Of a stretch of DNA of 64,000 bases, positions 36,828-64,000 are shown in pieces. The stretch is from Branchinecta lynchi (Eukaryota > Arthropoda > Branchiopoda > Anostraca > Branchinectidae). Where the stretch lies: positions 25,135,464-25,199,463 of the forward strand of contig JAKZAP010000007.1 in assembly GCA_023053575.1 (NCBI GenBank). The letters are read 5' to 3'. A program made the position numbers and the translations under genes. Every line of letters starts with the position of its first letter. The first letter of the stretch is position 1. Under the pieces are notes generated by a model that was not told the DNA's origin, did no database searches, and worked only from the letters and a program-made list of their open reading frames with translations.

Positions 36828-36829
36828 CC

Positions 36830-39344: not shown

Positions 39345-39358
39345 AACTGGAATTATTA

Positions 39359-40672: not shown

Positions 40673-40673
40673 C

Positions 40674-41003
40674 CAGGGGCGTCACGACTGGGGGGGGGAG
40701 GGGGGGGACGCCCCCCCCCCAATGCCGTCGGCCAGTCGGTAAAAATAACCGAGTCGGTGCGAAGCGCCGCGATTTTTCGTCAAAACAGTTGATTTTTTTC
40801 ACCGGCGATAGTCGGTTTTTCTGAAAATTGGTCGATTTTTCGTCAAAATAGTCGGTTTTTATGAAAATAAGTAGATGTTTCTGAAAATCAGTCGATTTTT
40901 TTTCAATAATGTCATTTTTATTGTTGAAAACAGTCGTTTTTTCTGCAGAAAAAGTCGGTAAAGTTTTCAGCCAGTCGGTAAATTCCTCGTCCCCCCCCCC
41001 CAA
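40674..41003 (+). mobile_element. hAT-type non-autonomous element, right end lost
   Basis: It starts CAGGGGCGTCACGACTGGGG inside the LINE C-terminus (compare the intact sequence 'ccgtctcaccacccctggag' in the tandem units). It continues through G and C runs, a 'gtcggtgcgaagcgccgcga' hairpin, and many 'gtcgatttttcgtcaaaa' type repeats of about 22-30 bases. A C-run near 40990 marks the end. The expected right terminus and the target duplication are missing, so the right side was lost in a rearrangement. Confidence 0.55.
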
Positions 41004-42059: not shown

Positions 42060-42560
42060 TTATCGTCCTATGACATCTGGGAGTACTTTAAATCATGATC
42101 ACCGAATCCGGCCCGATTCTTTCACTGATGCACCTACGACTTGTGCCTGTACTTCCCAGCAAGTTTCATCCTGATCGCTCAACTCTGTGCGAATCACAAG
42201 ATGTTCGGTTCTCCCCTCCACCCTCCCGCCCCCCAGTTCAGCGGATCCAGTCCGCACTTGAAACGGGAAATATGACACATGAGTTCTTTCAAGATGTCAA
42301 GTTTCATTATGATCCGATAACCCGATCGAAAGTTATGCATGCCACTAATTTCCGGATTCCGCCGTCTCCCCCTACCCCCATGACGGTCGGATCGGGCCAG
42401 TGACGTTTCCAAGTTAATCGGTCGGGTCTCTGATATGCCTGCCAAGTTTTATCGTCCTAGCCCACCTGGAAGTATATCAACTACGGATCACCGGAATCCA
42501 GGAACCCCCCTCCAACTCCCCCCACAGTATCCGAATCCGTTCCAGACCTGTCAGTTATTT
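42060..42560 (+). repeat. 'aagtttcat' repeat block in unit copy 1
   Basis: Segments such as 'caagtttcatcctgatcgct', 'gtcaagtttcattatgatcc' and 'ccaagttttatcgtccta' recur about every 130 bases. It is the same family as 20680-21760. Near-identical copies lie at 52600-53110 and 59960-60480 because the whole unit is duplicated. The 700 bases before it (41330-42050) show no gene. Confidence 0.75.
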
Positions 42561-42574
42561 ATCTAGAACTTGTG

Positions 42575-44041: not shown

Positions 44042-44066
44042 AACAAGTATACTGCTATGAAGTTTC

Positions 44067-44812
44067 GGTTTAGATCTTTTGTTATGCGGATGATTTTTTT
44101 AACATAAGTCGAACTGTTGCTGGTCTTGAACGGTATTTCCGGGATCTAAGTACTAATTATGATAAGATTGGTATGTCTTTGAATCCAGATAAATCCCAAG
44201 TGCTTTTGTTTAATTACAAGGATCCTATTGAAGCTCCGGTTAATTTGGGAGATTGCTACTCCAGTCGATCACTTCATGTACTTGGGTATCCCAATCGGTC
44301 GGACTATTGCTGCTACGCGGAAGCTTCTGGTACAGCACATTGAGAATAATGTGCGAAATTCTTACATTTCAGTAGTTGTATCCCAGCTAAATTTGGGTAG
44401 GAAACTACTTGCTCGAATATTCAACAGCTCAGTCATGGGCCATTTTCTGTATATCGTTCCCTTCTGGGACATATTAAGTGACAGTGATAAAGCTGACCTC
44501 CGAAAAATTTATTTTAAATATGGGAAATATCTCCTTGGAATCCCGTCCTGGTCAAGAAATAGACCTCTAGTGCGAAAATACGGTCTGCGGGAACCGGTAA
44601 CTGAAATGGCCGAACACTTCAAGCGGATGACTGCAGACAAGCCGTCTCACCACCCCTGGAGCGGCATTCTATTTTAGTATTTATCGAATTTGTTGTTGTT
44701 TTTGTATTTGGGTATGAGTTTATTAGTTCCTTCTTTTTTCTTTTCTTTGTTCTGTACTCCGTTTCATGCTTTTGTAGCTGTTGTAGATGGGTTATAAATA
44801 AATACGTACATA
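44067..44812 (+). pseudogene. LINE RT 3' fragment, unit copy 1
   Basis: The sequence is nearly identical to 40088-40672. It starts within the ADD motif region (TATGCGGATGATTTTTTT), runs through DHFMYLGIPIGRT and the C-terminal frame to a stop at 44675-44677, and then a 3' UTR ending 'ataaataaatacgtacata'. It is 5' truncated, as usual for LINE copies, and the same one-base frame break is present. Its truncated end abuts the NS5-like element. Confidence 0.85.
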
Positions 44813-44891
44813 CTATTCACTTCATTCAATCTGAAATATGCAGGGGGCTTACTAATACGGTAACCTGCAGAGTAGGCGACTTTGCGCCCCT

Positions 44892-45923
44892 TCAAAGCCG
44901 ACTGTCGTCGTTTAAATTCTCACGTGAACTATTTTGATATCGGTTATAAGGTCGTTGGGGGGATCTGTTTGGGGGGAAGCTCCTCTGGAAAGTGCGCCCG
45001 CGGGCGTTAGATGAAGGGGGGGGGAAGGGAGGTCTCTGGGAATTGCGCCCATGGGGGTTAAAATTTTCTGCGCTTCCACAGTATCTTGCTATGTGGCCAA
45101 TTCGTGAGCACGCATAGCAGCGGATTGTTCTTGAGTTAGATCTTCCCCTAAACGCGTCATGCTGACGGTATCCCCATTCGTTTGTTTGCTGTGCGGGTGA
45201 TTCATGCTGCCTTGATGAGCTGAACGTGCTCCTAACTTGATCCCTAACTACGTCCGCGAAGGATACTCCTCTTTGTCCTGACGCAGTCTGGAGGGTACTA
45301 GTAACCGCAGCAATCTCTCCCTCTTCAGAAACTGAACTAATTGTCAACCGTTGCTGGGCTTTTACTACCTCGTCAATAGTCAGTTCGTGCTCGATCAGTT
45401 TTAATGCCGCTTCCAAGTCGGGTGGCTGCTTGGAAAGCACCAGGCGCAGCAGTTTCGGTCCCAGGCCGTTCTTAAAATTTTCAAAGACCGCCCTCGTGAA
45501 TTGGTCATTTGGCCCCGTAGGTTTTCCCAGCTTTTCAATGGTCATTAGGGTCACACGGTCCGCATAATTTTTTATACTTTCATCCGCTCTTAAATGCACA
45601 ATCTCGTACTTCAGTTTACTTTTTTGGCTGGTATTTGCAAATCGAATTTTCAATCTGTCTAAAAGATCGTTCGGTGTTACAAAATCCTCTCCCTCCAATG
45701 TGTCCAGAAACGAAATTGCGGTCCCTCGCAGTCTCAGGTACATCATTTGTCTCAACCTTTCTGTTTCTGTTATTCCCGCAATACTCAGGAAATTTTTAAC
45801 GGATGTGACTAAGGAGTCTACATCCCCTGTGCCGTCATACTCCGGCATTTGTCTGATCAGTTCCGTCTGGAGGACATGGTACTCCAATCTCCTTTTCGTC
45901 TCTTCGGTAATTCCGTCAGTCAT
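44892..45923 (-). pseudogene. Ty3/gypsy Gag, unit copy 1 (open frame)
   Basis: From 45923 a 343-residue frame has a capsid-like part with ISFLDTLEGEDF, DLLDRLKIRFANTSQ, IVHLRADESIKNYADRV and FKNGLGPKLLRLVL, as in retrotransposon Gag. A CCHC knuckle (CYACSRIGHIARYC) and a proline/arginine-rich tail follow. The frame is intact here because the G-run at 45016-45024 has nine bases. No protease or pol follows; the LINE fragment lies there instead, so this is an isolated gag. Confidence 0.85.
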
Positions 45924-45979
45924 TTTGTCAGTCGGACAGTCTGTATGCTATCGTAATACCCGTCCACTACGTTTCAACC

Positions 45980-46892
45980 CTAAAACCGCTGGTCACCACT
46001 GTTGTATCTGATGAGTTTAGCATTTATTGCTATAGCTGACATTTTCTTGGCTAGTTGGGCGGGAAACAGCTCCTGCTGAGAGAATGCTGGGCCTAGCAAA
46101 ATAGCGCATCCGCGTGTCAAGCTTTCTTTAGTAGTGTCTGCATCTGCCTGCGTTGCTACCGTGCCTGGGGTTACACCAAATTCCTTAAAGATATCATCCA
46201 TCACCACTCTTTCGTACGTCTCCTCCATCCATCTCCTAATGTAAGGGATTGGCAGATAGGCAAACCATCGGACTAATACTTCCGGATGTGTCTTGAATAC
46301 CTGAAGCACTGCTATGAGTTGCGCGTTAGTAACTGCAATGTGCCTGTCGGGTTTGGTCTGAAACTAACTCCCAAACCGGATCTGTAGCTGTCATCCTTAT
46401 AGGAAGAGGAGCTTGGGTCTTTATCCCAACAATCCGCTCAGTAGTCCCATCTCTTTCGTGTTTTTCGATTTCCCCGAAAAAATCCACCTTGTAATCGTCC
46501 GATTTGGCTTCTGGCCCCATAAAAACGATCACAACCTGTAATTCTGGGTGGTTTGATGAATTCAGGTTCACCAGCATTGTAAGACTCACGCTGTTTCAGT
46601 CCGACTGGTCTATGAACTCAGAAGGATACTTCTTCATGTTGGTGGGCACAACATCTGTGGCGTGCATCCACAGTATGTTAGACTTTTTAGATCTCATCAA
46701 TGTATCCCAAGTGTCGCGGCTTGTCAACGTGAAATAGGTATATGGAATGGTAGTGCTTAGCCCATATTTGTCTACTTCGTCAGTTGTCATAATCGCTTCG
46801 ATATCTCCCGCAGCAAAAGGGAGTTGCGTCTCTTTCGTAATAACCAGGTTTCGCTCCATGATTCTAATTTGTGAATATGGCTCCATCTCCAT
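45980..46892 (-). pseudogene. Unrecognised ~300-codon frame, unit copy 1
   Basis: From 46892 the frame runs 98 codons, meets a TGA at 46593-46595, and resumes in the same frame. A one-base insertion (an extra A in 'tctgaaactaac') near 46362 then shifts it before the last segment (46309-45980). Segments include PYTYFTLTSRDTWDTL, NILWMHATDVVP, ELQVVIVFMGPEAKSDD, EVLVRWFAYLPIPYIRRW and LGPAFSQQELFPAQLAKK. The composition is that of a folded soluble protein without membrane or zinc motifs. I do not recognise it. A viral nucleocapsid or coat protein is a guess based on company, not on motifs. It ends about 57 bases before Gag starts. Confidence 0.5.
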
Positions 46893-47851
46893 GTGAATAT
46901 CGCTCCATCCTCATTAGCATAGACTTGTTAGGACCTTTTCCAACTGCAACCAGAGGAAGCAAATACCTGGTCGTAATTGCGGACCATTTCACTCGCTACA
47001 CAGTCCTAGCGGGTATGCCAGACAAAACAGCGAACGCAGTAGCGCGATCTTTTGTTGAAAAGCTAGTTTTAGGTTTAAGGTTTTAAGTTTTAAGGAATAA
47101 AGCAGACGCGTACCAGCAGCTTTCGAGCCTGTCACAATTGGAAAGGTGAAGTAAAAAACAAAGACATAGCAACCATGTTAAGCTTGTATATAGCGAGAAG
47201 AGACTACGCCGACTGGGAGAACCACCTCAGATACGTCCAATTCAGCATGAACTCTGCCTTTAATGAATGTATAGGCGATTCACTCTTCTACGCAATGTTT
47301 CTAAGAGAGCCCGGATTCCCAACCGAAGTTGTAGTAAACAGCTGCGTATTCTATAACATGGATGACTCGACAGAAGATAGCATACGACCTAGTTAGCAAC
47401 AACTCAGATTTTGCTCGAGACCGACAAAAGGACATACACGATCGGAAGGTCAACATGAACCCTATTCAATACGCCAACTAGTCCTTCTCAAAGTTCCACC
47501 GGAAGCAAGGCAGATAAAGCTTGCGAAAATCCGTTGGCTAGGCCCTTATCAGATAACCACAGTACTAGAAAATCAAGTAAATTTCGAAATCACAAGAATT
47601 GCTGATGGAGACAAGCAAATCGTCCATTATAATAGACTAAAGATTCATCGACCAAGAAGTTTGTGGGAACGTACTATTGAAATTGAAGATGATGAACACA
47701 CAGATACGGGCCAATCAGCGAAGAACAGACCCGCCACATGGTGAGACAAGAATGAACAAGCCAATCAGGAAGCTGAACCGCAACTTGAATCCACAAGCGG
47801 CGGGCAAACGAATCACGAAGCTCCTGAAATGGAACAACGATTGACAGCATA
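46880..47851 (+). pseudogene. Ty3/gypsy integrase with internal deletion, unit copy 1
   Basis: The frame from about 46880 reads SILISIDLLGPFPTATRG (first catalytic D) and VIADHFTRYTVLAGMPDK. An abrupt 'ggttttaagttttaaggaat' tract follows, and then 47175-47396 gives YADWENHLRYVQFSMNSAF, the region after the catalytic E. The D and E between them are deleted. Beyond a stop, another frame gives AKIRWLGPYQIT, a GPY/F-type C-terminal motif, and HYNRLKIHRPR. It belongs to a Ty3 element different from that at 36-39 kb. Confidence 0.8.
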
Positions 47852-48101
47852 ACGACAAACCGCAAGAAGGACAGCAGAGCCGGTCACCACACTACGTCCA
47901 AGAATAAATAAGGGGAGAATTGAGAAGACTCGAATCATGCCGCGTGTCTTTTGGCCCGATTCTCATTTATCGGGGGTGGACTCTAACCGTTGCTTGTCCC
48001 GACCACAGAGTAATTTTCGCTGGGCTGTTCCCCTGATTGCCGCACTTTATCACTGTTGGAAGAATTGAAGATAGATTTCGAGAAACAAAACAAAAGGAGT
48101 A

Positions 48102-51100
48102 CTAGACCTACGTTGCCCGGGCAACGTGAAGTGTTGCGGCAACCTTTGTCCGGCTTCGCCGGCTAAAGTGTTGCGAGAGCAACACTTTGGTTTTGTTTCT
48201 TCGCTGTCGGTTAAATGCTGAAATTGTCAACTAATCGAAGCTTTTAAAACGGTATGTTCTAAAAAGAATAATCACATAATCAAAAGCTGTTGTTTAGCGT
48301 TGTAAAACCAACAACAAAACAATATCGGAAGAAGGCTATCCGTAACGTTTCAGGATTAAAATACCATAGATGACACTATTAATTATTACAAAACTACCTT
48401 CTTGGTTTACATTACCGTATCGTTTGTACCCGTTGCGTAAACAGTTAATCCTAGGTTATAGCGATAGACCATCGATACAAACTTTCTTACTGTCATATTT
48501 ACAGAAATCGAATACAATGTGCACCAATTTTCAAAAATTTCTAGCCCCTCGTGAACCGATCTTACTTACAAGTCCCATGCATGTCTTACAATTGGGAACA
48601 AAATTGTTCTTACCATCGAATACACCTGAAACAAATAACAGGTATACCAGCTAGCAAAAGCTGCAAACTCCTCGTTGCCGAAGATGATTATGAGCTAACA
48701 GTCGACTGTTGCTTACAGTCGACTGTTGCTTACAAGTCCTTTACATGTCTCGCAACTGGTATCGCCTATTTTTGGTTTCAGTGTGTACCTTACTCCTGAA
48801 GTTGTCAACCCCTTGAAACTTTCAAACTGGTTTATCTCATGAAGGATTTTTGTTCAAAAGAATGGATGGCATATATTTTGATGAGCTCTTCAAGGGCTAT
48901 CGATTGCTCTAACCACAACAAAAGCATATCGGAAAAAGGGACTAAATTGACTTTGCAGTCAGTTGAACTTTATCCTTTTCAATCGTAGACATCGTGACGG
49001 ATGAAAACTTGGATTAATATCCTATATAATCTAGTTGGTATTATAAAGCTATCCGTAACTTATTAGGATTAAAATACCATAGATGACACTATTAATTATT
49101 ACGAAACTACCTTGTTTTACGTTACAGTATCGTTTGTACCCGTTGCGTTAACAGTCAATCCTAGGTTACAGCGATAGACCAACGATACAAACTTTCTTAC
49201 CGTCAGATTTAGATAAATCGAATACAATGTGCAACAATTTGCACAAATTTCTAGCCCCTCGTGCACCGATTCTACTGACAAGTCCCTTTCCCGTGATAGA
49301 CATCAAGTTCGCCGGATAAAAATAATGGGTACACCGACTAGCAAAAGTTGAAAACCCCTCATCGCTGAAGATTTGTGTAGCATAACAGCCGATTATTACT
49401 TACAAGTCCCTTGCATATCTTGCCCTTGCATGTTTTACATTTGGGAACCAAATTGTTCATCAAATGACAGGTACGCCAACTAGCGAGAGCTGCAAACCCC
49501 TCATTGCCGAAGATGATTATGAGCTAACAGTGGCCTGTCGCGTACAAGTCCCCTAAATGTCTCACAACTGGTATCGCCTATTTTTGGTTTCAGTGTGTAC
49601 CTTACTACTGAAGTTGTCAACCCCTTGAAACTTTCAAACTGGTGTATCTCATAAAGGAAATTTTTTTTACCAAAAAATGGATGTCATATACTTTGATCAG
49701 CTCATCAGCGGCTATCGATTGCCGTCGAAGTTGAACTTTATCCTTTTCAATCGTAGATATCGTGATGGATGAAAACTTGGAACAATATCTTATATAATCT
49801 AGTTGATATTATAAAGCTATCCGTAACTTTTCAGGATTAAAATACCATAGATGACACTATTAATTATTACAAAATTGCCTTATTGTTTTACATTACCGTA
49901 TCATTTGTACCCGTTGCGTAAACAGTTAGTCCTAGGTTATAGCGATAGACCATCGATACAAACTTTCTTACTGTCATATTTACAGAAATCGAATACAATG
50001 TGCACCAATTTTCAAAAATTTCTAGCCCCTCGTGAACCGATTCTTACTTACAAGCCCGTCTCCCGTTATTGACATCAAATTCACGGGAAACAAATAATGG
50101 ATACACCAGCTATCAAAAGTTGCAAGCCCCTCATCGCTGAAGATGATTATTGCATAAGCTTTTTAAACGGTATGTTCTAAAAAAATTAATCATATGATCA
50201 AAAGGTATTCTTCAGCGTTGTAAAAACAACAACAAAATAATATAGGAAGAAGGGACTAAATTAACTTCGCAGTCAGTTGTACTTTATCCTTTTCAATCGT
50301 AGACATCGTGACGGATGAAAACTTGGAACAATATCTTATATAATCTAGTTGGTAATAGAAACCTATCCGTAACTTTTCAGGATTAAAATACCATAGATGA
50401 CACTACTAATTATTATGAAACTACCTCATTGCTTTACATTTTCGTTTGTATCCGTTGTGTAAACAGTTAATCCTCGGTTACATTGATAGACCATCGACAC
50501 AAACTTTCTTACCGTCAGATTTATAGAAATCGAATACAATGTGCACCCATTTGCAAAAATTCCTAGCCCCTCGTGAACCGATTCCTACTTACAAGTCCCT
50601 CTCCCGTGATATACATTAAGATAACCGGAAACAAATAGTGGGTACTCCAGCTAGCAAAAGCTGCAAACCCATCATCGCAGAAGATGATTGTAGCATAACA
50701 GCCGATTATTACTTACAAGTCCCTTGCATATCTTGCCATTGGGAACCAAATTGTTCTTACCATCGAATACACCGGAAACAAATAACAGGTATACCAACTA
50801 GCAAAAGCTGCAAACCCCTCATTACCGAAGATGATTATGGGCTAACAGTCGACTGTTGCTTAAAAGTCCCCTATATGTATCATAACTGGTATCGCCTATT
50901 TTTGGTTTCAATGTACCTTACTATGAAGTTGTCAACCCCTTTGAAATTTTCAAACTGGTGTATCTCATGAAGGAATTTTTGTACCAAAAAATGGATGACA
51001 TATACTTTGATCAGCTCATCAATGGCTATCGATTGCCGTCGAAAAAAAAATTCTACCTGTCTTAGTTCAAAAGTTGACTTTTTTGCCGTAGGCCAACTTT

Positions 51101-51817
51101 CTAACGTCACGACTTAGAAAGGAGCAAAGGATAAGCTCTAGTTTCTTTAGCAATGAGAGAACTTTTAAAGTTTAAGAGGCTCATCTGATACCGTTACTCT
51201 ACCACAAACCAAAGTGCAAAAAAAAAAAATTATAAACTCAGCTGAAATCGTCGCAGACATGGACAGAAACAATAGATGGCAGCACTTTCGGACCCGTGGG
51301 AAAAAGCCACTTTTTTGTCTCTGTAGATTTTTCTATTCATCACTCAAAGAAGATATGTTGGCTGTGGGGCCGGGTAACTGCCGCATATATTTAACACTTA
51401 TAGATTTTAGTCCATCTTCAATTTGAAACTGGTGCCTGCCTGCTTGCGTGCTAGAACGGAGCTTTCCACTGGAAAGCAGAAACATCTTTTGATGAAACGA
51501 AAGGTTCGCTACACAACTTCAGATAGTCCTCTCTGACATAGGCTATACAACTCCACTTCACTTCGCAAACCGTAGGCTCTGGCTCGATGACAAGCAAAAA
51601 CCATCCTTATTGGCCCCAGGCAAGAGTTCTACGGAGCTTTCCAAAATGTAATGTCATATTCATCAATCCGGCCTAAGGTCCACACTTTCCGTAAAAACCG
51701 CACAGGTTAGACCCTTCTCAGTTACCAGGAATAAAATGAAATCGGAGTCATAGGAAAAAAAAAAAAAAAAAAAAAAAAAAACGAGGACAAAACCAAAGTG
51801 TTGCTCTCGCAACACAA
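48102..51817 (-). mobile_element. Helitron/Helentron-like non-autonomous element, 3.7 kb
   Basis: Comparison with copy 3 ('ggagta' then 'tgagttgc') shows the element sits exactly between A and T with no target duplication. On the minus strand it ends with a 16-base palindrome CGTTGCCCGGGCAACG, then TAGGT, then CTAG. A 3' hairpin followed by CTRR and insertion into AT are Helitron hallmarks. The segment gtgttgcgagagcaacac plus tttggttttgt occurs inverted near both ends (48170-48198 and 51788-51815), like the subterminal repeats of Helentron-associated elements. Its 5' end begins TT, not the usual TC. The interior is a tandem array, and I see no Rep/helicase. Confidence 0.65.
48310..50960. repeat. 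Central tandem repeats of the Helitron-like element
   Basis: Four diverged monomers begin near 48350, 49070, 49840 and 50380, each with 'aggattaaaataccatagatgacac', a 'gtttgtacccgttgcgtaaacag'-type segment and 'aatcgaatacaatgtgcacc'. The spacing is about 540-770 bases. A further monomer is present at about 1660 in the other copy. Several monomers carry a smaller repeat around 'ctagcaaaagctgcaaaccc'. Short frames differ between monomers by indels, so I do not regard them as protein-coding. Confidence 0.75.
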
Positions 51818-53199
51818 TGAGTTGCAAGAGTTTGTGAATTTCATGAATAACAGTGAAAATTGATAGCACCTGGTAAGAATGAATGAAGAAGATGCAGTTG
51901 AACAGGTATGTCTTTTGTTTTTAAAGATGTTTTTGCAAGTCAGTTGTGAGCTGCCCTTGAGGATTTGTTGTTGTGTGACTACAGGCTATCCTCGAGGTAA
52001 TAACTGCAGCATTATAAATCATGCTTTAACATTTCTGTGATGAACATCAGGTGGACAGGGTGGTCATCTTGACTTTCCATCTTTGTATAGTAGAGGCATG
52101 CTTTTCAGCTTATGTGAAAGTGATAGTTTGTTGACATTGGACTTTGCCATTTTCATGCACTTGCTGTATCTAAACCTAACTATTAGTTAGCCATAGTAGG
52201 TAATTAAAAGCATCCGAAAACACCTGAATAGGTATTTTGGGTTTTCAATCGTTCTATCGTCCCAAAACTGTACAGGAAGGGTATTCAACCTCGGACAAGA
52301 TTTCAAATTTCCAGAGAAGTCATCCTTCAGAATAATCTGTCTGGCTTAAAAAGTAACCACAAAATATGACAAACTTGCTAGACTCAAGCTCACTGAATGG
52401 TTTACATATTGGATGAATAAATATTGAATACCAAAACCCTTGAGGCAAAAAGAATCATGTACTGATAGCGATCTTAAAAAATTAAATTTTGCTTAAAAGT
52501 ATTGTTTGTATTTTGCGGTTAAGATGAGTTCTTTAAGGAGTGGTCGGATCGGAGAAGGTGGCGATGTCTAACCCAATGATGTCAAGTTTCTAATGCTTTA
52601 GCAATGTTTTATCGTCCTATGACATCTGGGAGTACTTTAACTCATGATCACCGAATCCGGCCCGATTCTTTCACTGATGCACCTACGACTTGTGCCTGTA
52701 CTTCCCAGCAAGTTTCATCCTGATCGCTCAACTCTGTGCGAATCACAAGATTTTCGGTTCTCCCCTCCACCCTCCCGCCCCCCAGTTCAGCGGATCCAGT
52801 CCGCACTTGAAACGGGAAATATGACACATGAGTTCTTTCAAGATGTCAAGTTTCATTATGATCCGATAACCCGATCGAAAGTTATGCATGCCACTAATTT
52901 CCGGATTCCGCCGTCTCCCCCTACCCCCATGACGGTCGGATCGGGCCAGTGACGTTTCCAAGTTAATCGGTCGGGTCTCTGATATGCCTGCCAAGTTTTA
53001 TCGTCCTAGCCCACCTGGAAGTATATCAACTACGGATCACCGGAATCCAGGAACCCCCCTCCAACTCCCCCCACAGTATCCGAATCCGTTCCAGACCTGT
53101 CAGTTATTTATCTAGAACTTGTGCTAGTTCTTCCCACCAAGTTTCACCCCGATCGCTGCACTTGGCCGGGAGGCAAGTGTTAAGATGTTGAACCTGGAG

Positions 53200-53365
53200 G
53201 AAGTTTCCAATCCCACTTCTGACACCATTGTTAAGAAGATGTGATATCGAATCCCACTGTTGAGACCATTGTTAAGAATGTTATCCCACTTCTGGACCCC
53301 ATTGTTAAGAATGTGTCCCACTTGTGACAACATTGTTAAGGTTGTTATCCCACTGTTGAGAGGAT
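53200..53365. repeat. Minisatellite, unit copy 2
   Basis: About five imperfect units of roughly 25-35 bases built on 'ccattgttaagaatgttatccc' and 'cccactgttgaga'. The same block recurs at 60550-60715 in copy 3. Copy 1 lost it in its 0.54-kb deletion. Confidence 0.8.
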
Positions 53366-53460
53366 GGACGAGTGGAGGCGAGGTTTAATGTAGATAAGGC
53401 TCCTGGGGTGTGGGCTGTAGACATTCTGACACCGTAGGTGCCCACTAGCCCCAGGACCAG

Positions 53461-55115
53461 TCAGGAAACCGCCAGTCTGCACAACATCTTCATAGATCTA
53501 TACAAGTTGGCAACCGCTACTGTAACATCGAAAGAAGCTACGTCATCACTCACGATGGCTCTGATAAAGATCTCAAGCAATCTCATCCCTAGGTCAAACA
53601 AAGCCAACCCTCCGACTCCGAACCTGTTGATCATAGGTTTTGTCAATATCGTGACTTGACCAAATATCTTTAACTCAAGTAATCTCATTGAGCCACATAA
53701 GTAAGCCACCATCCTAGAGGATACTTGCTCCCCCTTCATAGCTTTCCTCTCACGCTTACCCATTGTATTGAAGATAGCGGAATCACATTTCCCTTCAGAT
53801 AAGTCTTTCTCCAAAACTTCGACTTTCTTTTGCCAGGTGCCTGAGTCAAGGTATTCCCCCAAGTTTTTAAACCCAAGGTTGTCTTCTTGTCTCCCCATTG
53901 ATCCTTGCCTATTGGCTTGGGTCATTATTTCGGCTTCATTCAACAATCTAAGACGAACTCCTTTGCGCTCGTAGTGGTCCGTCATGCCATCAAAGATAAG
54001 GTCCATCTTGGCATCATAGTTTGTCACTTCTCTAGGGGTCTTATCGATCTTTCGCCTAAACATCTCTAAGAAGGCACTAGGCCGTGTGTCTGTAACCATC
54101 CACGCTTGTATACCTGGCAACCAAGCATTCAATCCTGAAGTCAACCTGGCAGCAAGATCATTCATACGGCTCCCAGATGCCCCCAAACTCGCTCCTCTTA
54201 CCAAGCCCAACACATTTCAGTGTATATACCTATCAAAGCCTTCCTTAGCGGCAACCATCGGCCCTAAAGTACTCAAGCTGCTACCTATATCCACAGGTGG
54301 CAATAAAGCTTTAGACAAGGTGAGATCTGCCGGAATGGTCTTCATGCCTTGGTGCTTCGCCCAATGCAAGGCAGCACCAGTCTCGTCTTTGACATTTTTC
54401 TCCAACGATTCTATCCTTCCGGTGACGAAGTACATCTCTAAGTTAGTGCCTCTAGAGGACATCAATCTAACCAGTTTGCCCCTGCCAGTCCTAGCTTGCG
54501 TATGCCGCAACAGCTTCATGGTTCCAGGGTCTCCTGGCGTCAAAACCTTGACAATAAATCCCTGTCCAGGTGAAATTTGCCTAAGAGCACTCTCCAACAA
54601 TTGGTTGAACCTTTGACTCTCAATCTCTGCATTAGGGTGGCTTTCTCCACCATCAAAGAGCACCCAATCTTGCTTTTTTGACATCCCTTAGATGGATCTC
54701 CCTGAAGTTTCTCTGATCCCGGCATTTCAAGGTGTTGCAAGCGTCTAAACTACGTCTCTGACTCTTTATTAAGGGCCTCCTTGAAGGCCATCCTTGCCTG
54801 CATGGCTGTTCGTGCTTCTGCAGCTCTCTCCCAAGGTGCCAAGCTATGAAGATTCCTCTTACGCCGCACCCCTTGGCCCCACCTCCAGACAAAGATAAAA
54901 ACTCTCCCCCAGAAGGGAAGGGGCAAGGGCAATGCTACAGCAAGAACATCAAATCCGCATATCATCCAATCAACAAAAAAAGAAGTAAAGTTCCACAACA
55001 ACGACAGTACAGGGCTGCCAGTGCTGGCCCAGGCCAAAAATAGCCCAGGCCAATTCGCCAGCCAAGTCATTGCTCTGAACTCTGCTTTTTGTTTAATACA
55101 GTGAATTAACTCCAA
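53461..55115 (-). pseudogene. Flavivirid NS5-like endogenous viral element, copy 2
   Basis: Same layout as copy 1: membrane-rich segment 55115-54750, methyltransferase part 54684-54217, then polymerase part 54213-53461. Further breaks are visible: a deletion that replaces 'ccatgtttgaacagccaatt' near 54672, and a TGG-to-TGA change at 54214-54216 in the linker. Beyond the motif-F-like basic segment it extends into SDDVASFDVTV, which fits polymerase motif A (two Asp five residues apart). It ends at the 0.20-kb deletion soon after. No motif B or GDD motif is present. Confidence 0.8.
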
Positions 55116-55139
55116 AACAAGTATACTGCTATGAAGTTT

Positions 55140-55878
55140 CGGTTTAGATGTTTTGTTATGCGGATGATTTTTTTAACATAAGTCGAACTGTTGCTGGTCT
55201 TGAACGGTATTTCCGGGATCTAAGTACTAATTATGATAAGATTGGTATGTCTTTGAATCCAGATAAATCCCAAGTGCTTTTGTTTAATTACAAGGATCCT
55301 ATTGAAGCTCCGGTTAATTTGGGAGATTGCTACTCCAGTCGATCACTTCATGTACTTGGGTATCCCAATCGGTCGGACTATTGCTGCTACGCGGAAGCTT
55401 CTGGTACAGCACATTGAGAATAATGTGCGAAATTCTTACGTTTCAGTAGTTGCTAAATTTGGGTAGGAAACTACTTGCTCGAATATTCAACAGCTCAGTC
55501 ATGGGCCATTTTCTGTATATCGTTCCCTTCTGGGACATATTAAGTGACAGTGATAAAGCTGACCTCCGAAAAATTTATTTTAAATATGGGAAATATCTCC
55601 TTGGAATCCCGTCCTGGTCAAGAAATAGACCTCTAGTGCGAAAATACGGTCTGCGGGAACCGGTAACTGAAATGGCCGAACACTTCAAGCGGATGACTGC
55701 AGACAAGCCGTCTCACCACCCCTGGAGCGGCATTCTATTTTAGTATTTATCGAATTTGTTGTTGTTTTTGTATTTGGGTATGAGTTTATTAGTTCCTTCT
55801 TTTTTCTTTTCTTTGTTCTGTACTCCGTTTCATGCTTTTGTAGCTGTTGTAGATGGGTTATAAATAAATACGTACATA
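55140..55878 (+). pseudogene. LINE RT 3' fragment, unit copy 2
   Basis: Equivalent to 44067-44812. It has a small internal deletion near 55452 (the 'tatcccag' present in copies 1 and 3 is missing), which alters the start of the C-terminal frame. The 3' UTR and tail are the same. Confidence 0.85.
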
Positions 55879-55957
55879 CTATTCACTTCATTCAATCTGA
55901 AATATGCAGGGGGCTTACTAATACGGTAACCTGCAGAGTAGGCGACTTTGCGCCCCT

Positions 55958-56990
55958 TCAAAGCCGACTGTCGTCGTTTAAATTCTCACGTGAACTATTT
56001 TGATATCGGTTATAAGGTCGTTGGGGGGATCTGTTTGGGGGGAAGCTCCTCTGGAAAGTGCGCCCGCGGGCGTTAGATGAAGGGGGGGGGGAAGGGAGGT
56101 CTCTGGGAATTGCGCCCATGGGGGTTAAAATTTTCTGCGCTTCCACAGTATCTTGCTATGTGGCCAATTCGTGAGCACGCATAGCAGCGGATTGTTCTTG
56201 AGTTAGATCTTCCCCTAAACGCGTCATGCTGACGGTATCCCCATTCGTTTGTTTGCTGTGCGGGTGATTCATGCTGCCTTGATGAGCTGAACGTGCTCCT
56301 AACTTGATCCCTAACTACGTCCGCGAAGGATACTCCTCTTTGTCCTGACGCAGTCTGGAGGGTACTAGTAACCGCAGCAATCTCTCCCTCTTCAGAAACT
56401 GAACTAATTGTCAACCGTTGCTGGGCTTTTACTACCTCGTCAATAGTCAGTTCGTGCTCGATCAGTTTTAATGCCGCTTCCAAGTCGGGTGGCTGCTTGG
56501 AAAGCACCAGGCGCAGCAGTTTCGGTCCCAGGCCGTTCTTAAAATTTTCAAAGACCGCCCTCGTGAATTGGTCATTTGGCCCCGTAGGTTTTCCCAGCTT
56601 TTCAATGGTCATTAGGGTCACACGGTCCGCATAATTTTTTATACTTTCATCCGCTCTTAAATGCACAATCTCGTACTTCAGTTTACTTTTTTGGCTGGTA
56701 TTTGCAAATCGAATTTTCAATCTGTCTAAAAGATCGTTCGGTGTTGCAAAATCCTCTCCCTCCAATGTGTCCAGAAACGAAATTGCGGTCCCTCGCAGTC
56801 TCAGGTACATCATTTGTCTCAACCTTTCTGTTTCTGTTATTCCCGCAATACTCAGGAAATTTTTAACGGATGTGACTAAGGAGTCTACATCCCCTGTGCC
56901 GTCATACTCCGCCATTTGTCTGATTAGTTCCGTCTGGAGGACATGGCACTCCAATCTCCTTTTCGTCTCTTCGGTAATTCCGTCAGTCAT
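55958..56990 (-). pseudogene. Ty3/gypsy Gag, unit copy 2 (frameshifted)
   Basis: The same Gag as 44892-45923, but the G-run at 56082-56091 has ten bases instead of nine. This shifts the frame after the CCHC knuckle and truncates the proline/arginine-rich tail at 305 residues. A few substitutions (for example FAT for FVT, and AEY for PEY) show independent drift. Confidence 0.85.
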
Positions 56991-57046
56991 TTTGTCAGTC
57001 GGACAGTCTGTATGCTATCGTAATACCCGTCCACTACGTTTCAACC

Positions 57047-57958
57047 CTAAAACCGCTGGTCACCACTGTTGTATCTGATGAGTTTAGCATTTATTGCTAT
57101 AGCTGACATTCTCTTGGCTAGTTGGGCGGGAAACAGCTCCTGCTGAGAGAACGCTGGGCCTAGCAAAATAGCGCATCCGCATGTCAAGCTTTCTTTAGTA
57201 GTGTCTGCATCTGCCTGCGTTGCTACCGTGCCTGGGGTTACACCAAATTCCTTAAAGACATCGTCCATCACCACTCTTTCGTACGTCTCCTCCATCCATC
57301 TCCTAATGTAAGGGAATAGCAGATAGGCAAACCATCGGACTAATACTTCCGGATGTGTCTTGAATACCTGAAGCACTGCTATGAGTTGCGCGTTAGTAAC
57401 TGCAATGTGCCTGTCGGGTTTGGTCTGAACTAACTCCCAAACCGGATCTCTAGCTGTCATCCTTATAGGAAGAGGAGCTTGGGTCTTTATCCCAACAATC
57501 CGCTCAGTAGTCCCATCTCTTTCGTGTTTTTCGATTTCCCCGAAAAAATCCACCTTGTAATCGTCCGATTTGGCTTCTGGCCCCATAAAAACGATCACAA
57601 CCTGTAATTCTGGGTGGTTTGATGAATTCAGGTTCACCAGCATTGTAAGACTCACGCTGTTTCAGTCCGACTGGTCTATGAACTCAGAAGGATACTTCTT
57701 CATATTGGTGGGCACAACATCTGTGGCGTGCATCCACAGTATGTTAGACTTTTTAGATCTCATCAATTTATCCCAAGTGTCGCGGCTTGTCAACGTGAAA
57801 TAGGTATATGGAATGGTAGTGCTTAGCCCATATTTGTCTACTTCGTCAGTTGTCATAATCGCTTCGATATCTCCCGCAGCAAAAGGGAGTTGCGTCTCTT
57901 TCGTAATAACCAGGTTTCGCTCCATGATTCTAATTTGTGAATATGGCTCCATCTCCAT
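57047..57958 (-). pseudogene. Unrecognised ~300-codon frame, unit copy 2
   Basis: The best-preserved copy. It has 98 codons from 57958, a TGA at 57659-57661, then 202 codons in the same frame to 57047. Removing only that stop would leave one frame of about 300 codons. The stop is shared with copy 1, so it predates the duplication or is read through. Substitutions between copies (VFKEF for IFKEF, TCGC for TRGC) are few. No known domain is recognised. Confidence 0.5.
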
Positions 57959-58917
57959 GTGAATATCGCTCCATCCTCATTAGCATAGACTTGTTAGGAC
58001 CTTTTCCAACTGCAACCAGAGGAAGCAAATACGTGGTCGTAATTGCGGACCATTTCACTCGCTACACAGTCCTAGCGGGTATGCCAGACAAAACAGCGAA
58101 CTCAGTAGCGCGATCTTTTGTTGAAAAGCTAGTTTTAGGTTTTAGGTTTTAAGTTTTAAGGAATAAAGCAGACGCGTACCAGCAGCTTTCGAGCCTGTCA
58201 CAATTGGAAAGGTGAAGTAAAAAACAAAGACATAGCAACCATGTTAAGCTTGTATATAGCGAGAAGAGACTACGCCGACTGGGAGAACCACCTCAGATAC
58301 GTCCAATTCAGCATGAACTCTGCCTTTAATGAATGTATAGGCGATTCACTCTTCTACGCAATGTTTCTAAGAGAGCCCGGATTCCCAACCGAAGTTGTAG
58401 TAAACAGCTGCGTATTCTATAACATGGATGACTCGACAGAAGATAGCATACGACCTAGTTAGCAACAACTCAGATTTTGCTCGAGACCGACAAAAGGACA
58501 TACACGATCGGAAGGTCAACATGAACCCTATTCAATACGCCAACTAGTCCTTCTCAAAGTTCCACCGGAAGCAAGGCAGATAAAGCTTGCGAAAATCCGT
58601 TGGCTAGGCCCTTATCAGATAACCACAGTACTAGAAAATCAAGTAAATTTCGAAATCACAAGAATTGCTGATGGAGACAAGCAAATCGTCCATTATAATA
58701 GACTAAAGATTCATCGACCAAGAAGTTTGTGGGAACGTACTATTGAAATTGAAGATGATGAACACACAGATACGGGCCAATCAGCGAAGAACAGACCCGC
58801 CACATGGTGAGACAAGAATGAACAAGCCAATCAGGAAGCTGAACCGCAACTTGAATCCACAAGCGGCGGGCAAACGAATCACGAAGCTCCTGAAATGGAA
58901 CAACGATTGACAGCATA
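57946..58917 (+). pseudogene. Ty3/gypsy integrase with internal deletion, unit copy 2
   Basis: Equivalent to 46880-47851, with the same internal deletion at the 'ggttttaggttttaagtttt' tract and the same stops, so the deletion is older than the duplication. It starts head to head with the unrecognised minus-strand frame, overlapping its first codons. Confidence 0.8.
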
Positions 58918-60891
58918 ACGACAAACCGCAAGAAAGACAGCAGAGCCGGTCACCACACTACGTCCAAGAATAAATAAGGGGAGAATTGAGAAGACTCGAA
59001 TCATGCCGCGTGTCTTTTGGCCCGATTCTCATTTATCGGGGGTGGACTCTAACCGTTGCTTGTCCCGACCACAGAGTAATTTTCGCTGGGCTGTTCCCCT
59101 GATTGCCGCACTTTTATCACTGTTGGAAGAATTGAAGATAGATTTCGAGAAACAAAACAAAAGGAGTATGAGTTGCAAGAGTTTGTGAATTTCATGAATA
59201 ACAGTGAAAATTGATAGCACCTGGTAAGAATGAATGAAGAAGATGCAGTTGAACAGGTATGTCTTTTGTTTTTAAAGATGTTTTTGCAAGTCAGTTGTGA
59301 GCTGCCCTTGAGGATTTGTTGTTGTGTGACTACAGGCTATCCTCGAGGTAATAACTGCAGCATTATAAATCATGCTTTAACATTTCTGTGATGAACATCA
59401 GGTGGACAGGGTGGTCATCTTGACTTTCCATCTTTGTATAGTAGAGGCATGCTTTTCAGCTTATGTGAAAGTGATAGTTTGTTGACATTGGACTTTGCCA
59501 TTTTCATGCACTTGCTGTATCTAAACCTAACTATTAGTTAGCCATAGTAGGTAATTAAAAGCATCCGAAAACACCTGAATAGGTATTTTGGGTTTTCAAT
59601 CGTTCTATCGTCCCAAAACTGTACAGGAAGGGTATTCAACCTCGGACAAGATTTCAAATTTCCAGAGAAGTCATCCTTCAGAATAATCTGTCTGGCTTAA
59701 AAAGTAACCACAAAATATGACAAACTTGCTAGACTGAAGCTCACTGAATGGTTTACATATTGGATGAATAAATATTGAATACCAAAACCCTTGAGGCAAA
59801 AAGAATCATGTACTGATAGCGATCTTAAAAAATTAAATTTTGCTTAAAAGTATTGTTTGTATTTTGCGGTTAAGATGAGTTCTTTAAGGAGTGGTCGGAT
59901 CGGAGAAGGTGGCGATGTCTAACCCAATGATGTCGAGTTTCTAATGCTTTAGCAAAGTTTTATCGTCCTATGACATCTGGGAGTACTTTAACTCATGATC
60001 ACCGAATCCGGCCCGATTCTTTCACTGATGCACCTACGACTTGTGCCTGTACTTCCCAGCAAGTTTCATCCTGATCGCTCAACTCTGTGCGAATCACAAG
60101 ATTTTCGGTTCTCCCCTCCACCCTCCCGCCCCCCAGTTCAGCGGATCCAGTCCGCACTTGAAACGGGAAATATGACACATGAGTTCTTTCAAGATGTCAA
60201 GTTTCATTATGATCCGATAACCCGATCGAAAGTTATGCATGCCACTAATTTCCGGATTCCGCCGTCTCCCCCTACCCCCATGACGGTCGGATCGGGCCAG
60301 TGACGTTTCCAAGTTAATCGGTCGGGTCTCTGATATGCCTGCCAAGTTTTATCGTCCTAGCCCACCTGGAAGTATATCAACTACGGATCACCGGAATCCA
60401 GGAACGCCCCTCCAACTCCCCCCACAGTATCCGAATCCGTTCCAGACCTGTCAGTTATTTATCTAGAACTTGTGCTAGTTCTTCCCACCAAGTTTCACCC
60501 CGATCGCTGCACTTGGCCGGGAGGCAAGTGTTAAGATGTTGAACCTGGAGGAAGTTTCCAATCCCACTTCTGACACCATTGTTAAGAAGATGTGATATCG
60601 AATCCCACTGTTGAGACCATTGTTAAGAATGTTATCCCACTTCTGGACCCCATTGTTAAGAATGTGTCCCACTTGTGACAACATTGTTAAGGTTGTTATC
60701 CCACTGTTGAGAGGATGGACGAGTGGAGGCGAGGTTTAATGTAGATAAGGCTCCTGGGGTGTGGACTGTAGACATTCTGACACCGTAGGTGCCCACTAGC
60801 CCCAGGACCAGTCAGGAAACCGGACAAAAGAGACAAGGGAAAGTCTCAGGGAATTCTATAGCTCAGCCGCAGTCAATCCGGAAATCCCTGA

Positions 60892-62680
60892 TCAAGCTGG
60901 TTCACACATTCTAGCGAAGCTGGAATTCACATATCCAGTCAACTCAGAAGGGATAGCGATAATCGGGTTGGCATAAATCCTATACATCCCTTTTATCAAA
61001 GCTCTATGATAATCAGAGGAAGCCAGTCTGCACAACATCTTCATAGATCTATACAAGTTGGCAACCGCTACTGTAACATCGAAAGAAGCTACGTCATCAC
61101 TCACGATGGCTCTGATAAAGATCTCAAGCAATCTCATCCCTAGGTCAAACAAAGCCAACCCTCCGACTCCGAACCTGTTGATCATAGGTTTTGTCAATAT
61201 CGTGACTTGACCAAATATCTTTAACTCAAGTAATCTCATTGAGCCACATAAGTAAGCCACCATCCTAGAGGATACTTGCTCCCCCTTCATAGCTTTCCTC
61301 TCACGCTTACCCATTGTATTGAAGATAGCGGAATCACATTTCCCTTCAGATAAGTCTTTCTCCAAAACTTCGACTTTCTTTTGCCAGGTGCCTGAGTCAA
61401 GGTATTCCCCCAAGTTTTTAAACCCAAGGTTGTCTTCTTGTCTCCCCATTGATCCTTGCCTATTGGCTTGGGTCATTATTTCGGCTTCATTCAACAATCT
61501 AAGACGAACTCCTTTGCGCTCGTAGTGGTCCGTCATGCCATCAAAGATAAGGTCCATCTTAGCATCATAGTTTGTCACTTCTCTAGGGGTCTTATCGATC
61601 TTTCGCCTAAACATCTCTAAGAAGGCACTAGGCCGTGTGTCTGTAACCATCCACGCTTGTATACCTGGCAACCAAGCATTCAATCCTGAAGTCAACCTGG
61701 CAGCAAAATCATTCATACGGCTCCCAGACGCCCCCAAACTCGCTCCTCTTACCAAGCCCAACACATTCCAGTGTATATACCTATCAAAGCCTTCCTTAGC
61801 GGCAACCATCGGCCCTAAAGTACTCAAGCTGCTACCTATATCCACAGGTGGCAATAAAGCTTTAGACAAGGTGAGATCTGCCGGAATGGTCTTCATGCCT
61901 TGGTGCTTCGCCCAATGCAAGGCAGCACCAGTCTCGTCTTTGACATTTTTCTCCAACGATTCTATCCTTCCGCAGACGAAGTACATCTCTAAGTTAGTGC
62001 CTCTAGAGGACATCAATCTAACCAGTTTGCCCCTGCCAGTCCTAGCTTGCGTATGCCGCAACAGCTTCATGGTTCCAGGGTCTCCTGGCGTCAAAACCTT
62101 GACAATAAATCCCTGTCCAGGTGAAATTTGCCTAAGAGCACTCTCCAACAATTGGTTGAACCTTTGACTCTCAATCTCTGCATTAGGGTGGCTTTCTCCA
62201 CCATCAAAGAGCACCCAATCTTGCCATGTTTGAACAGCCAATTCTACATCCCTTAGATGGGTCTCCCTGAAGTTTCTCTGATCCCGGCATTTCAAGGTGT
62301 TGCAAGCGTCTAAACTACGTCTCTGACTCTTTATTAAGGGCCTCCTTGAAGGCCATCCTTGCCTGCATGGCTGTTCGTGCTTCTGCAGCTCTCTCCCAAG
62401 GTGCTAAGCTATGAAGATTCCTCTTACGCCGCACCCCTTGGCCCCACCTCCAGACAAAGATAAAAACTCTCCCTCAGAAGGGAAGGGGCAAGGGCAATGC
62501 TACAGCAAGAACATCAAATCCGCATATCATCCAATCAACAAAAAAAGAAGTAAAGTTCCACAACAACGACAGTACAGGGCTGCCAGTGCTGGCCCAGGCC
62601 AAAAATAGCCCAGGCCAATTCGCCAGCCAAGTCATTGCTCTGAACTCTGCTTTTTGTTTAATACAGTGAATTAACTCCAA
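60892..62680 (-). pseudogene. Flavivirid NS5-like endogenous viral element, copy 3 (longest)
   Basis: The frame 62295-60892 is open for 467 codons. It includes WVLFDGGES (motif Asp), GFIVKVLTPG (Lys), TNLEMYFV (Glu), a linker with LGLVRGASLGASGSRMND, the FNTMGKRERK motif-F-like segment, and SDDVASFDVTV (motif A). It then ends about 55 residues later at a TGA (60892-60894), before any motif B or GDD. The membrane-rich upstream part (62680-62474) is cut by a TGG-to-TGA change at about 62472. The SAM-binding loop is missing as in the other copies. The open 467 codons suggest either young age or constraint. Confidence 0.82.
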
Positions 62681-62704
62681 AACAAGTATACTGCTATGAA
62701 GTTT

Positions 62705-63452
62705 CGGTTTAGATGTTTTGTTATGCGGATGATTTTTTTAACATAAGTCGAACTGTTGCTGGTCTTGAACGGTATTTCCGGGATCTAAGTACTAATTATG
62801 ATAAGATTGGTATGTCTTTGAATCCAGATAAATCCCAAGTGCTTTTGTTTAATTACAAGGATCCTATTGAAGCTCCGGTTAATTTGGGAGATTGCTACTC
62901 CAGTCGATCACTTCATGTACTTGGGTATCCCAATCGGTCGGACTATTGCTGCTACGCGGAAGCTTCTGGTACAGCACATTGAGAATAATGTGCGAAATTC
63001 TTACATTTCAGTAGTTGTATCCCAGCTAAATTTGGGTAGGAAACTACTTGCTCGAATATTCAACAGCTCAGTCATGGGCCATTTTCTGTATATCGTTCCC
63101 TTCTGGGACATATTAAGTGACAGTGATAAAGCTGACCTCCGAAAAATTTATTTTAAATATGGGAAATATCTCCTTGGAATCCCGTCCTGGTCAAGAAATA
63201 GACCTCTAGTGCGAAAATACGGTCTGCGGGAACCGGTAACTGAAATGGCCGAACACTTCAAGCGGATGACTGCAGACAAGCCGTCTCACCACCCCTGGAG
63301 CGGCATTCTATTTTAGTATTTATCGAATTTGTTGTTGTTTTTGTATTTGGGTATGAGTTTATTAGTTCCTTCTTTTTTCTTTTCTTTGTTCTGTACTCCG
63401 TTTCATGCTTTTGTAGCTGTTGTAGATGGGTTATAAATAAATACGTACATAC
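62705..63452 (+). pseudogene. LINE RT 3' fragment, unit copy 3
   Basis: Equivalent to 44067-44812 and without the small deletion of copy 2. Same junction with the NS5-like element ('gaagtttcggtttagatg') and same 3' tail. Confidence 0.85.
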
Positions 63453-63530
63453 TATTCACTTCATTCAATCTGAAATATGCAGGGGGCTTACTAATACGGT
63501 AACCTGCAGAGTAGGCGACTTTGCGCCTCT

Positions 63531-64000
63531 TCAAAGCCGACTGTCGTCGTTTAAATTCTCACGTGAACTATTTTGATATCGGTTATAAGGTCGTTGGGGG
63601 GATCTGTTTGGGGGGAAGCTCCTCTGGAAAGTGCGCCCGCGGGCGTTAGATGAAGGGGGGGGGGAAGGGAGGTCTCTGGGAATTGCGCCCATGGGGGTTA
63701 AAATTTTCTGCGCTTCCACAGTATCTTGCTATGTGGCCAATTCGTGAGCACGCATAGCAGCGGATTGTTCTTGAGTTAGATCTTCCCCTAAACGCGTCAT
63801 GCTGACGGTATCCCCATTCGTTTGTTTGCTGTGCGGGTGATTCATGCTGCCTTGATGAGCTGAACGTGCTCCTAACTTGATCCCTAACTACGTCCGCGAA
63901 GGATACTCCTCTTTGTCCTGACGCAGTCTGGAGGGTACTAGTAACCGCAGCAATCTCTCCCTCTTCAGAAACTGAACTAATTGTCAACCGTTGCTGGGCT
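63531..64000 (-). pseudogene. Ty3/gypsy Gag, unit copy 3 (partial, frameshifted)
   Basis: The C-terminal half of the same Gag, entering from beyond the window. It has the CCHC knuckle (CYACSRIGHIARYC) and a ten-base G-run at about 63655-63664, which shifts the tail as in copy 2. Confidence 0.85.

What the first reader, a model, noticed from the sequence alone, without database searches (positions are those of the whole stretch)
60892..62680. Flavivirid NS5-like endogenous viral element, present in three copies with one 467-codon open frame
Seen: a membrane-rich segment, a basic junction, a methyltransferase with Asp, Lys and Glu of the catalytic tetrad in order (LFDGGES, IVKVL, LEMYF), a motif-F-like basic segment and a motif-A-like DDVASFD, in one orientation and in the order NS4B end to NS5. 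Known: flavivirid sequences do occur in invertebrate genomes, but they are uncommon, since these viruses carry no reverse transcriptase. Inferred: a sub-genomic piece of a flavivirid or related virus was reverse-transcribed into this genome and then amplified. The SAM loop is missing in all copies, and the polymerase stops before motif B.
Basis: partly seen in the sequence, partly recalled or inferred. Interest (0 to 1): 0.9.

Follow-up and report, generated by a model that had tools for sequence, protein, structure and literature searches.

The report
Viral polymerase fossil inside retrotransposon ends
A piece of a jingmenvirus-like polymerase gene was apparently copied into an invertebrate's chromosome by one of the animal's own jumping genes, whose two end pieces still bracket it, and the locus was later duplicated in tandem.

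Summary
The 467-codon frame is a methyltransferase-polymerase piece of a flavivirid (Pfam Flavi_NS5 E 7e-11). Its nearest solved relative is Jingmen tick virus NSP1 (163 bits; best orthoflavivirus NS5 72 bits). Its nearest named relative found is Wuhan aphid virus 2, an insect jingmen-related virus (38.7% identity).

Two corrections. The membrane-rich segment need not be NS4B: jingmenvirus NSP1 has its own N-terminal membrane segment. The SAM loop is missing only from the three window copies; a fourth copy, starting 4.5 kb beyond the window, keeps it.

The integration route can be read from that fourth copy. The viral piece lies between two inverted fragments of one LTR family. Both outer ends are exact LTR ends, flanked by the same four bases, CAAG. 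Four solo LTRs and one virus-free inverted LTR pair also show 4-bp duplications. Best reading: an LTR-retrotransposon reverse transcriptase switched onto viral RNA and its integrase inserted the product. Later tandem duplication gave four copies. All are defective; no evidence of domestication. A known kind of event in an unusually complete, apparently new configuration.

The parts
60943..62700 (-). EVE copy C, viral part: membrane-rich region, MTase lacking the SAM-loop region, RdRp up to just before motif B
60892..62295 (-). 467-codon open frame (503 codons stop to stop, 60895-62403); its last 16 codons are LTR-derived
60529..60942 (-). Left LTR arm of copy C: LTR positions about 436-795 plus extra end repeats, same strand as the EVE, ending at the LTR terminus (TGTTAAG on +)
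60525..60528 (.). Left 4-bp CAAG; its partner follows the right LTR arm of copy D outside the window (L011:7070-7073)
53472..55135 (-). EVE copy B (lacks 200 bp at the polymerase/LTR end; SAM region lost with its own breakpoints; in-frame stop)
53178..53471 (-). Left LTR arm of copy B (shortened); CAAG at 53174-53177
42579..44061 (-). EVE copy A (lacks 733 bp relative to C: the LTR arm and part of the polymerase)
62477..62704 (-). Membrane-rich open frame of copy C; fuller frames 43679-44098 (A) and 54753-55172 (B) include some junction sequence
62244..62246 (-). Site of the ~223-bp deletion that removed the SAM-loop region in C; same breakpoint in A (43606/43608), different ones in B (54673/54675)
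62701..63534 (+). Duplication junction: EVE 5' end (4 filler bases) joined head-to-head to a 5'-truncated non-LTR element, with following shared sequence (right end of the element not defined); also from 44062 and 55136
39329..40673 (+). Left edge of the array: the same non-LTR element running through the breakpoint at 40088
40088..64000 (.). Tandem array; units begin at 40088, 44066, 55140 and 62705; the fourth ends outside the window with copy D (L011:6508)

Best explanation
This is a non-retroviral endogenous viral element from the segment-1 (NSP1/NS5-like) RNA of an extinct or unsampled jingmen-related flavivirid, captured by an LTR retrotransposon. Step 1 (inferred from junctions): the LTR element's reverse transcriptase, copying its own LTR region, switched at LTR position ~436 onto viral RNA just upstream of polymerase motif B, and copied towards the viral RNA's 5' end. 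Step 2 (inferred): a second strong-stop cDNA was copied in the opposite sense, giving a linear DNA with an LTR 3' (U5) end at both tips. Step 3 (junctions shown, enzyme inferred): the retrotransposon integrase inserted it, duplicating the four bases CAAG. Step 4 (from copy comparison): tandem duplication of a segment from inside a neighbouring non-LTR element to the EVE 5' end gave four copies. Step 5 (shown): the copies decayed by deletions, stops and frameshifts. Present function: most likely none as a protein; a small-RNA source is possible but untested.
For: Identity; the MTase piece of copy D passes FtsJ's cut-off (39.9 against 24.1 bits). LTR capture: left arm = LTR ~436-795, right arm = LTR 231-795, both ending at the LTR terminus and flanked by CAAG. 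The family is an LTR (794-799 bp in 5 copies, TG...CA). Of 8 distinct LTR copies with both ends found, 4 are solo LTRs with perfect 4-bp duplications, 2 are read as the two LTRs of one element with matching outer CTTT, 1 follows a purine run (a 3' LTR) and 1 shows no duplication. Same genome, no virus: an inverted LTR pair with both outer ends LTR termini and duplication GGAG (L034). The LTR part is repetitive (49 matches; 40 of 949 candidates scored, copy D included), the region upstream of the MTase is not: it was found only in the four EVE copies (4 of 4 candidates). Array: the non-LTR element is unbroken at the left edge, the EVE runs into its LTR arm at the right edge, unit starts repeat.
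Against: No empty site was examined. The right LTR arm survives in one copy only, so the duplication rests on one pair of flanks (four matching bases at fixed places, 1 in 256 by chance). The arms are not identical: 8 differences in 238 columns outside the end repeats, 33 in 359 with the poorly alignable end repeats, and different end-repeat numbers; they may be old or come from different templates. One of 8 LTR copies shows no duplication. The second template switch is inference only. No similarity of the membrane-rich region to known NSP1 N-termini was detected.
Confidence: 0.82

Rival explanations
1. The viral cDNA was inserted by a non-LTR element (LINE) by target-primed reverse transcription with twin priming; the head-to-head LINE-EVE junction is the original integration junction.
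For: In A, B and C the EVE 5' end abuts a 5'-truncated non-LTR reverse-transcriptase fragment in the opposite orientation.
Against: The same element is uninterrupted at the left edge of the array, and copy D lacks the LINE there and continues into an LTR arm. No shared word of 8 or more bases in the flanks searched.
Confidence: 0.05
2. The EVE was already in the genome and the LTR fragments are two independent later insertions that happen to flank it.
For: The arms are not identical (8 of 238 columns) and are truncated at different LTR positions.
Against: Two separate insertions would each carry a full LTR and its own duplication. Here the two outer ends share one CAAG, both inner ends are truncated, and the viral reading breaks at one of them. 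A virus-free inverted pair with its own duplication exists. Inner junctions were not searched systematically for duplications.
Confidence: 0.08
3. The source was an unsegmented flavivirid with NS4B followed by NS5; an unsegmented crustacean virus (IPV) groups near jingmenviruses (PMC12942856 and PMC11494968, passages).
For: A membrane-rich frame precedes the MTase in the same frame, and is longer than the N-terminal extension of many jingmen-related proteins.
Against: An ATG lies in that frame about 65 bases from the EVE 5' end; segment-1 proteins usually have their own hydrophobic N-terminus; upstream of the MTase match there are only about 440 bp in C. One helicase model (PF07652) found nothing in the genome, which is weak evidence.
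Confidence: 0.12
4. The open frame in copy C is kept by selection (a domesticated RdRp or antiviral gene).
For: 503 codons without a stop.
Against: A, B and C lack the SAM-loop region; A, B and D carry stops or frameshifts; the polymerase ends before motif B; the last 16 codons are LTR. Copies 98.5-99.8% identical leave too few changes to show selection; no selection test was run.
Confidence: 0.04

Closest known systems
eBxnv-1, nodavirus-like EVE captured by a Bel/Pao LTR element in Bursaphelenchus xylophilus (PMC5177903; Discussion and passages read)
   Same: Plus-strand RNA virus polymerase enclosed by LTRs; copy-choice recombination proposed
   Different: There the virus lies inside an element with two LTRs and pol, single copy; here between two inverted, truncated LTR arms with U5 ends outside, a 4-bp duplication, and four tandem copies
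LCMV-IAP recombination in mouse cells (Geuking et al. 2009; recalled, paper not seen)
   Same: LTR-retrotransposon reverse transcriptase switching to viral RNA, product integrated
   Different: Experimental, arenavirus
Jingmenvirus segment-1 EVE of Ixodes ricinus (PMC9501327, passages; PMC13155725, three sections read)
   Same: Endogenous jingmenvirus polymerase gene
   Different: Tick; thought to be one copy per haploid genome; over 76% nucleotide identity to Alongshan virus segment 1. Here about 38% amino-acid identity to insect-type relatives, tandem array, LTR arms
Insect jingmen-related viruses (Wuhan aphid virus 2, Guaico Culex virus and others)
   Same: NS5-like protein with MTase and RdRp, usually with a hydrophobic N-terminus
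   Different: Exogenous; the EVE is a long separate branch

Membership tests
Jingmen-related flavivirid NSP1 (NS5-like) | Polymerase of the flavivirid NS5 type, closer to NSP1 than to orthoflavivirus NS5 | tested here: met
   163 against 72 bits in PDB; BLASTP to jingmen-related NS5-like proteins up to 286 bits
Jingmen-related flavivirid NSP1 (NS5-like) | MTase with SAM loop and catalytic motifs | tested here: met
   Asp, Lys, Glu motifs in the window frame (tetrad recalled); SAM loop in copy D only. No single copy carries them in one frame
Jingmen-related flavivirid NSP1 (NS5-like) | N-terminal transmembrane stretch, protein alone on its segment | tested here: inconclusive
   Membrane-rich frame precedes the MTase in frame but no sequence similarity; segmentation cannot be seen from an EVE
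Jingmen-related flavivirid NSP1 (NS5-like) | Place in a tree with the tick and insect clades | tested here: inconclusive
   Outside 46 relatives (87% UFBoot) with P0049/P0050 as outgroup; several deep nodes 28-46%; no tick jingmenvirus among the names shown for the 51 hits
Non-retroviral endogenous viral element | Viral piece in contiguous chromosomal DNA with host flanks and decay | tested here: met
   Window lies in a 27.9-Mb contig; four copies with flanks, stops, deletions
LTR-retrotransposon-captured EVE | LTR ends at the insertion edges with a target-site duplication of the family's length | tested here: met
   CAAG on both sides, LTR termini; family duplicates 4 bp
LTR-retrotransposon-captured EVE | Direct LTRs with internal retroelement genes, as in eBxnv-1 | tested here: not met
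   Arms are inverted and truncated; so it works like that class in another configuration
LINE-mediated (twin-primed) EVE | LINE joined to the viral piece in the original insertion, with target-site duplication | tested here: not met
   Copy D has no LINE at the junction; LINE intact at the array edge; no shared flank word

The most novel reading that the evidence does not exclude
Strong-stop cDNA of LTR retrotransposons can pick up a foreign RNA between two strong-stop arms and be inserted by integrase as an inverted U5-virus-U5 product. The virus-free inverted LTR pair in the same genome would be the by-product without cargo. This would be a distinct, recognisable route for non-retroviral RNA viruses into animal genomes, easily missed by searches that look for direct LTRs.
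Probability: 0.5. Interest if true: 0.75.

Novelty: new variant of a known kind. Interest (0 to 1): 0.6.

Why it matters
How RNA viruses without reverse transcriptase enter germ lines is often inferred from proximity to retrotransposons. Here both edges are present, with LTR ends and a target-site duplication, so the route can be tested. The authors of a 2016 paper knew of only one earlier natural example of capture by a retroelement (PMC5177903, Discussion). It also adds a diverged jingmen-related lineage from the host's past.

Tried and rejected
Twin priming by the neighbouring LINE was my working model; copy D speaks against it. NS4B origin of the membrane-rich segment: PDB searches gave one chance hit and none; a profile of 36 NSP1 N-termini scored it below several of 200 shuffles. 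Foldback/TIR DNA transposon as the flanking element: considered; rejected because six of the seven loci fetched show no inverted second LTR arm and the ends are LTR ends; only L034 has an inverted pair. Target-site duplication of 8 or more bases around the LINE version: none in the stretches searched. Helicase (NSP2) EVE: none at E 0.01 with PF07652, one candidate scored. Viral-contig scans: 3 of 3 gave no relative. Frame at 57050-57661: no Pfam, PDB or database match at the thresholds used. Splicing as cause of the SAM-region loss: breakpoints of A/C do not read as GT-AG, by eye, and B differs. Host: COX1 search found partial, stop-bearing fragments only; by eye, against recalled COX1 motifs, they fit the invertebrate mitochondrial code (table 5) better than the echinoderm code. 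Species not identified.

The tree used 48 of the 51 proteins plus the EVE; P0047 and P0010 were dropped by name, P0051 by length. The LTR count scanned L015-L034; several loci are double fetches of one copy, L020 was not matched by the script, L022/L034 is the inverted pair.

Full report
Observation. The minus-strand frame at 60892-62295 is real (467 codons from the first start codon, 503 stop to stop). It matches Pfam Flavi_NS5 (41.8 bits, E 7.1e-11, cut-off 25), FtsJ below its cut-off (22.7 against 24.1 bits), and a sub-threshold GldM_4th (E 0.036). Against the PDB the best hit is Jingmen tick virus NSP1 (163 bits); the best orthoflavivirus NS5 scores 72 bits; the 60 hits shown of 82 are flavivirid chains. 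The first protein search, limited by length, returned one relative, P0001 (34% identity). A profile of P0001 and the frame returned 51 proteins, among them Wuhan aphid virus 1 and 2, Guaico Culex virus, Inopus flavus jingmenvirus 1 and Changjiang Jingmen-like virus (only the 7993 candidates sharing most words were scored). All 51 match the frame by BLASTP; the best scores 286 bits.

Placement. In a tree of 49 sequences over 455 columns the element is a long branch, outside 46 relatives with 87% ultrafast bootstrap when P0049 and P0050 are taken as outgroup; several deep nodes have 28-46%. Highest identity is 38.7%, to P0012 (unnamed) and P0013 (Wuhan aphid virus 2). No tick jingmenvirus is among the names shown for the hits, so its place relative to them is open. 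I call it jingmen-related, not a member of either named genus.

Copies. The window holds three copies within long repeats of 98.9-99.7% identity. The genome search (91 of 468 candidates scored, so counts are lower bounds) places the window at C20:25135464-25199463 of a 575.7-Mb genome in 216 contigs. It finds a fourth copy (D) at C20:25203932-25205303, starting 4.5 kb beyond the window, and a diverged element on C22 (49% identity). Family PF00972 finds the four C20 copies and not the C22 one. On C22, tblastn with the relatives finds three pieces, from about motif A to the thumb, in L013:5031-3886.

The SAM loop. Copy D has about 223 bp that A, B and C lack. This part encodes the MTase SAM loop (GKVLELCSGRGGW) and a following GPGHEGHE stretch. 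It matches the profile of the relatives with 93 bits and Pfam FtsJ with 39.9 bits. The deletion has the same breakpoint in A and C and different ones in B, so the region was lost at least twice or was trimmed further in B. D is itself broken (stop and frameshift).

The membrane-rich segment. It is open for 140 codons in A and B (including junction sequence) and is broken in C. In D it is in the same frame as the SAM-loop piece, with one stop between. A DNA search found it only in the four copies (4 of 4 candidates; the tool warns that no match does not prove rarity), so it is not an evident host repeat. Its sequence matches the N-termini of 36 relatives no better than shuffles. Alongshan virus NSP1 has a predicted signal or transmembrane stretch at residues 1-26 before the MTase (PMC10575543, passages). 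In 36 of 45 full-length homologues the first 60 residues hold a 19-residue stretch with mean hydropathy of at least 1.6; in 9 they do not. The simplest reading is the N-terminal region of NSP1, fast-evolving; NS4B is not needed.

The array. A 586-bp piece of a non-LTR element recurs at 40088, 44066, 55140 and 62705. At 40088 the element runs on to the left without a break, with a reverse-transcriptase frame from 39329. In A, B and C its truncated start abuts the EVE 5' end head to head. In D there is no LINE; the EVE runs into another sequence. So the LINE-EVE joint is best read as the breakpoint of a tandem duplication whose unit runs from LINE position 40088 to the EVE 5' end. Units carry deletions relative to C (733 bp in A, 200 bp in B) and an insertion between A and B (48101-51817).

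The integration. The sequence to the right of D belongs to a repeat family: 49 matches, 40 of 949 candidates scored. It is an LTR: 794-799 bp in five copies, starting TGTTATGG and ending CTTAACA. Of 8 distinct LTR copies with both ends found, four are solo LTRs with perfect 4-bp duplications (CATC, ACGG, GTAC, GCTG). Two on C6, about 16 kb apart, have matching outer bases CTTT and are read as the two LTRs of one element. One follows a purine run (a 3' LTR). One shows no duplication. At D the viral piece has LTR ~436-795 on its left (inverted) and LTR 231-795 on its right. Both outer ends are LTR termini; CAAG precedes the left one and follows the right one. The left arm with CAAG is also seen in B and C. 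The viral reading ends where the left arm begins, so the last 16 codons of the 467-codon frame are LTR. On C2 an inverted LTR pair without virus has the same topology and duplication GGAG (L034).

Mechanism. Shown: the junctions, LTR ends, the 4-bp repeat on both sides, the copy differences and the array edges. Inferred: that the reverse transcriptase of the LTR element switched from its own RNA to viral RNA and copied it towards its 5' end, that a second strong-stop cDNA supplied the other arm, and that the element's integrase inserted the product. The right arm's inner end (LTR 231) lies 21 bases after the start of a TATTTT run at LTR 210; a transcription start there would fit strong-stop DNA but is not shown. 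The arms differ at 8 of 238 columns outside the end repeats, or 33 of 359 with them; the EVE copies A, B, C differ by 0.7-1.6%. If the arms were alike at the start, the insertion is older than the tandem copies; I give no date.

Function. A, B and C lack the SAM-loop region, and the viral part of every copy ends before motif B. No evidence for a protein function was found; expression could not be tested. A small-RNA source is possible and untested.

Known background. Jingmenvirus-derived EVEs are in print for ticks: Ixodes ricinus segment 1 (PMC9501327, passages), Haemaphysalis longicornis, I. persulcatus and I. pacificus (PMC13155725, sections 11, 17, 21 read; PMC10675110, passages). Capture of an RNA-virus polymerase by an LTR element is in print for Bursaphelenchus (PMC5177903, Discussion read), which mentions an experimental mammalian case and one earlier natural example. 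I saw no paper on an inverted U5-virus-U5 insertion in searches (5 listed; 20 listed; 0 papers; 10 listed of 299), and none on a jingmen-related EVE bracketed by LTR ends in searches (20 of 25; 20 of 125; 20 of 53). These were read as listings of an open-access subset, so the claim is limited; Bamford et al. 2022 was not held.

Host. The species was not identified. Nuclear fragments of COX1 read sensibly with the invertebrate mitochondrial code (table 5), judged by eye.

Noticed in passing
L013:3886-5031 (G000 C22:8336885-8338030): A second, diverged jingmen-related polymerase element: three pieces from about motif A to the thumb, 50% identical to the array element over 118 residues; a non-LTR reverse-transcriptase frame lies just upstream.
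   Followed up: partly
L034:3244-4239 (G000 C2): An inverted pair of LTRs with both outer ends LTR termini and duplication GGAG, without virus.
   Followed up: partly
57050-57661 (-), also 45983-46363 and L011:623-1235: 204-residue frame just upstream of a gag-like frame, without Pfam, PDB or protein-database match.
   Followed up: partly
35976-39231 (-): Pol-like frames of an LTR element (RT and RNase H by Pfam for 37029-38018; protease- and integrase-like frames by eye), left of the array.
   Followed up: no
48101-51817 and 1540-3579: A dispersed repeat region, mostly 83-95% alike, that interrupts the array between units A and B.
   Followed up: no
35390-35745: 45-bp tandem repeat, about 8 copies, overlapped by open frames on both strands.
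   Followed up: no
7822-8209: Tandem duplication of 194 bp, 99.5% identical.
   Followed up: no
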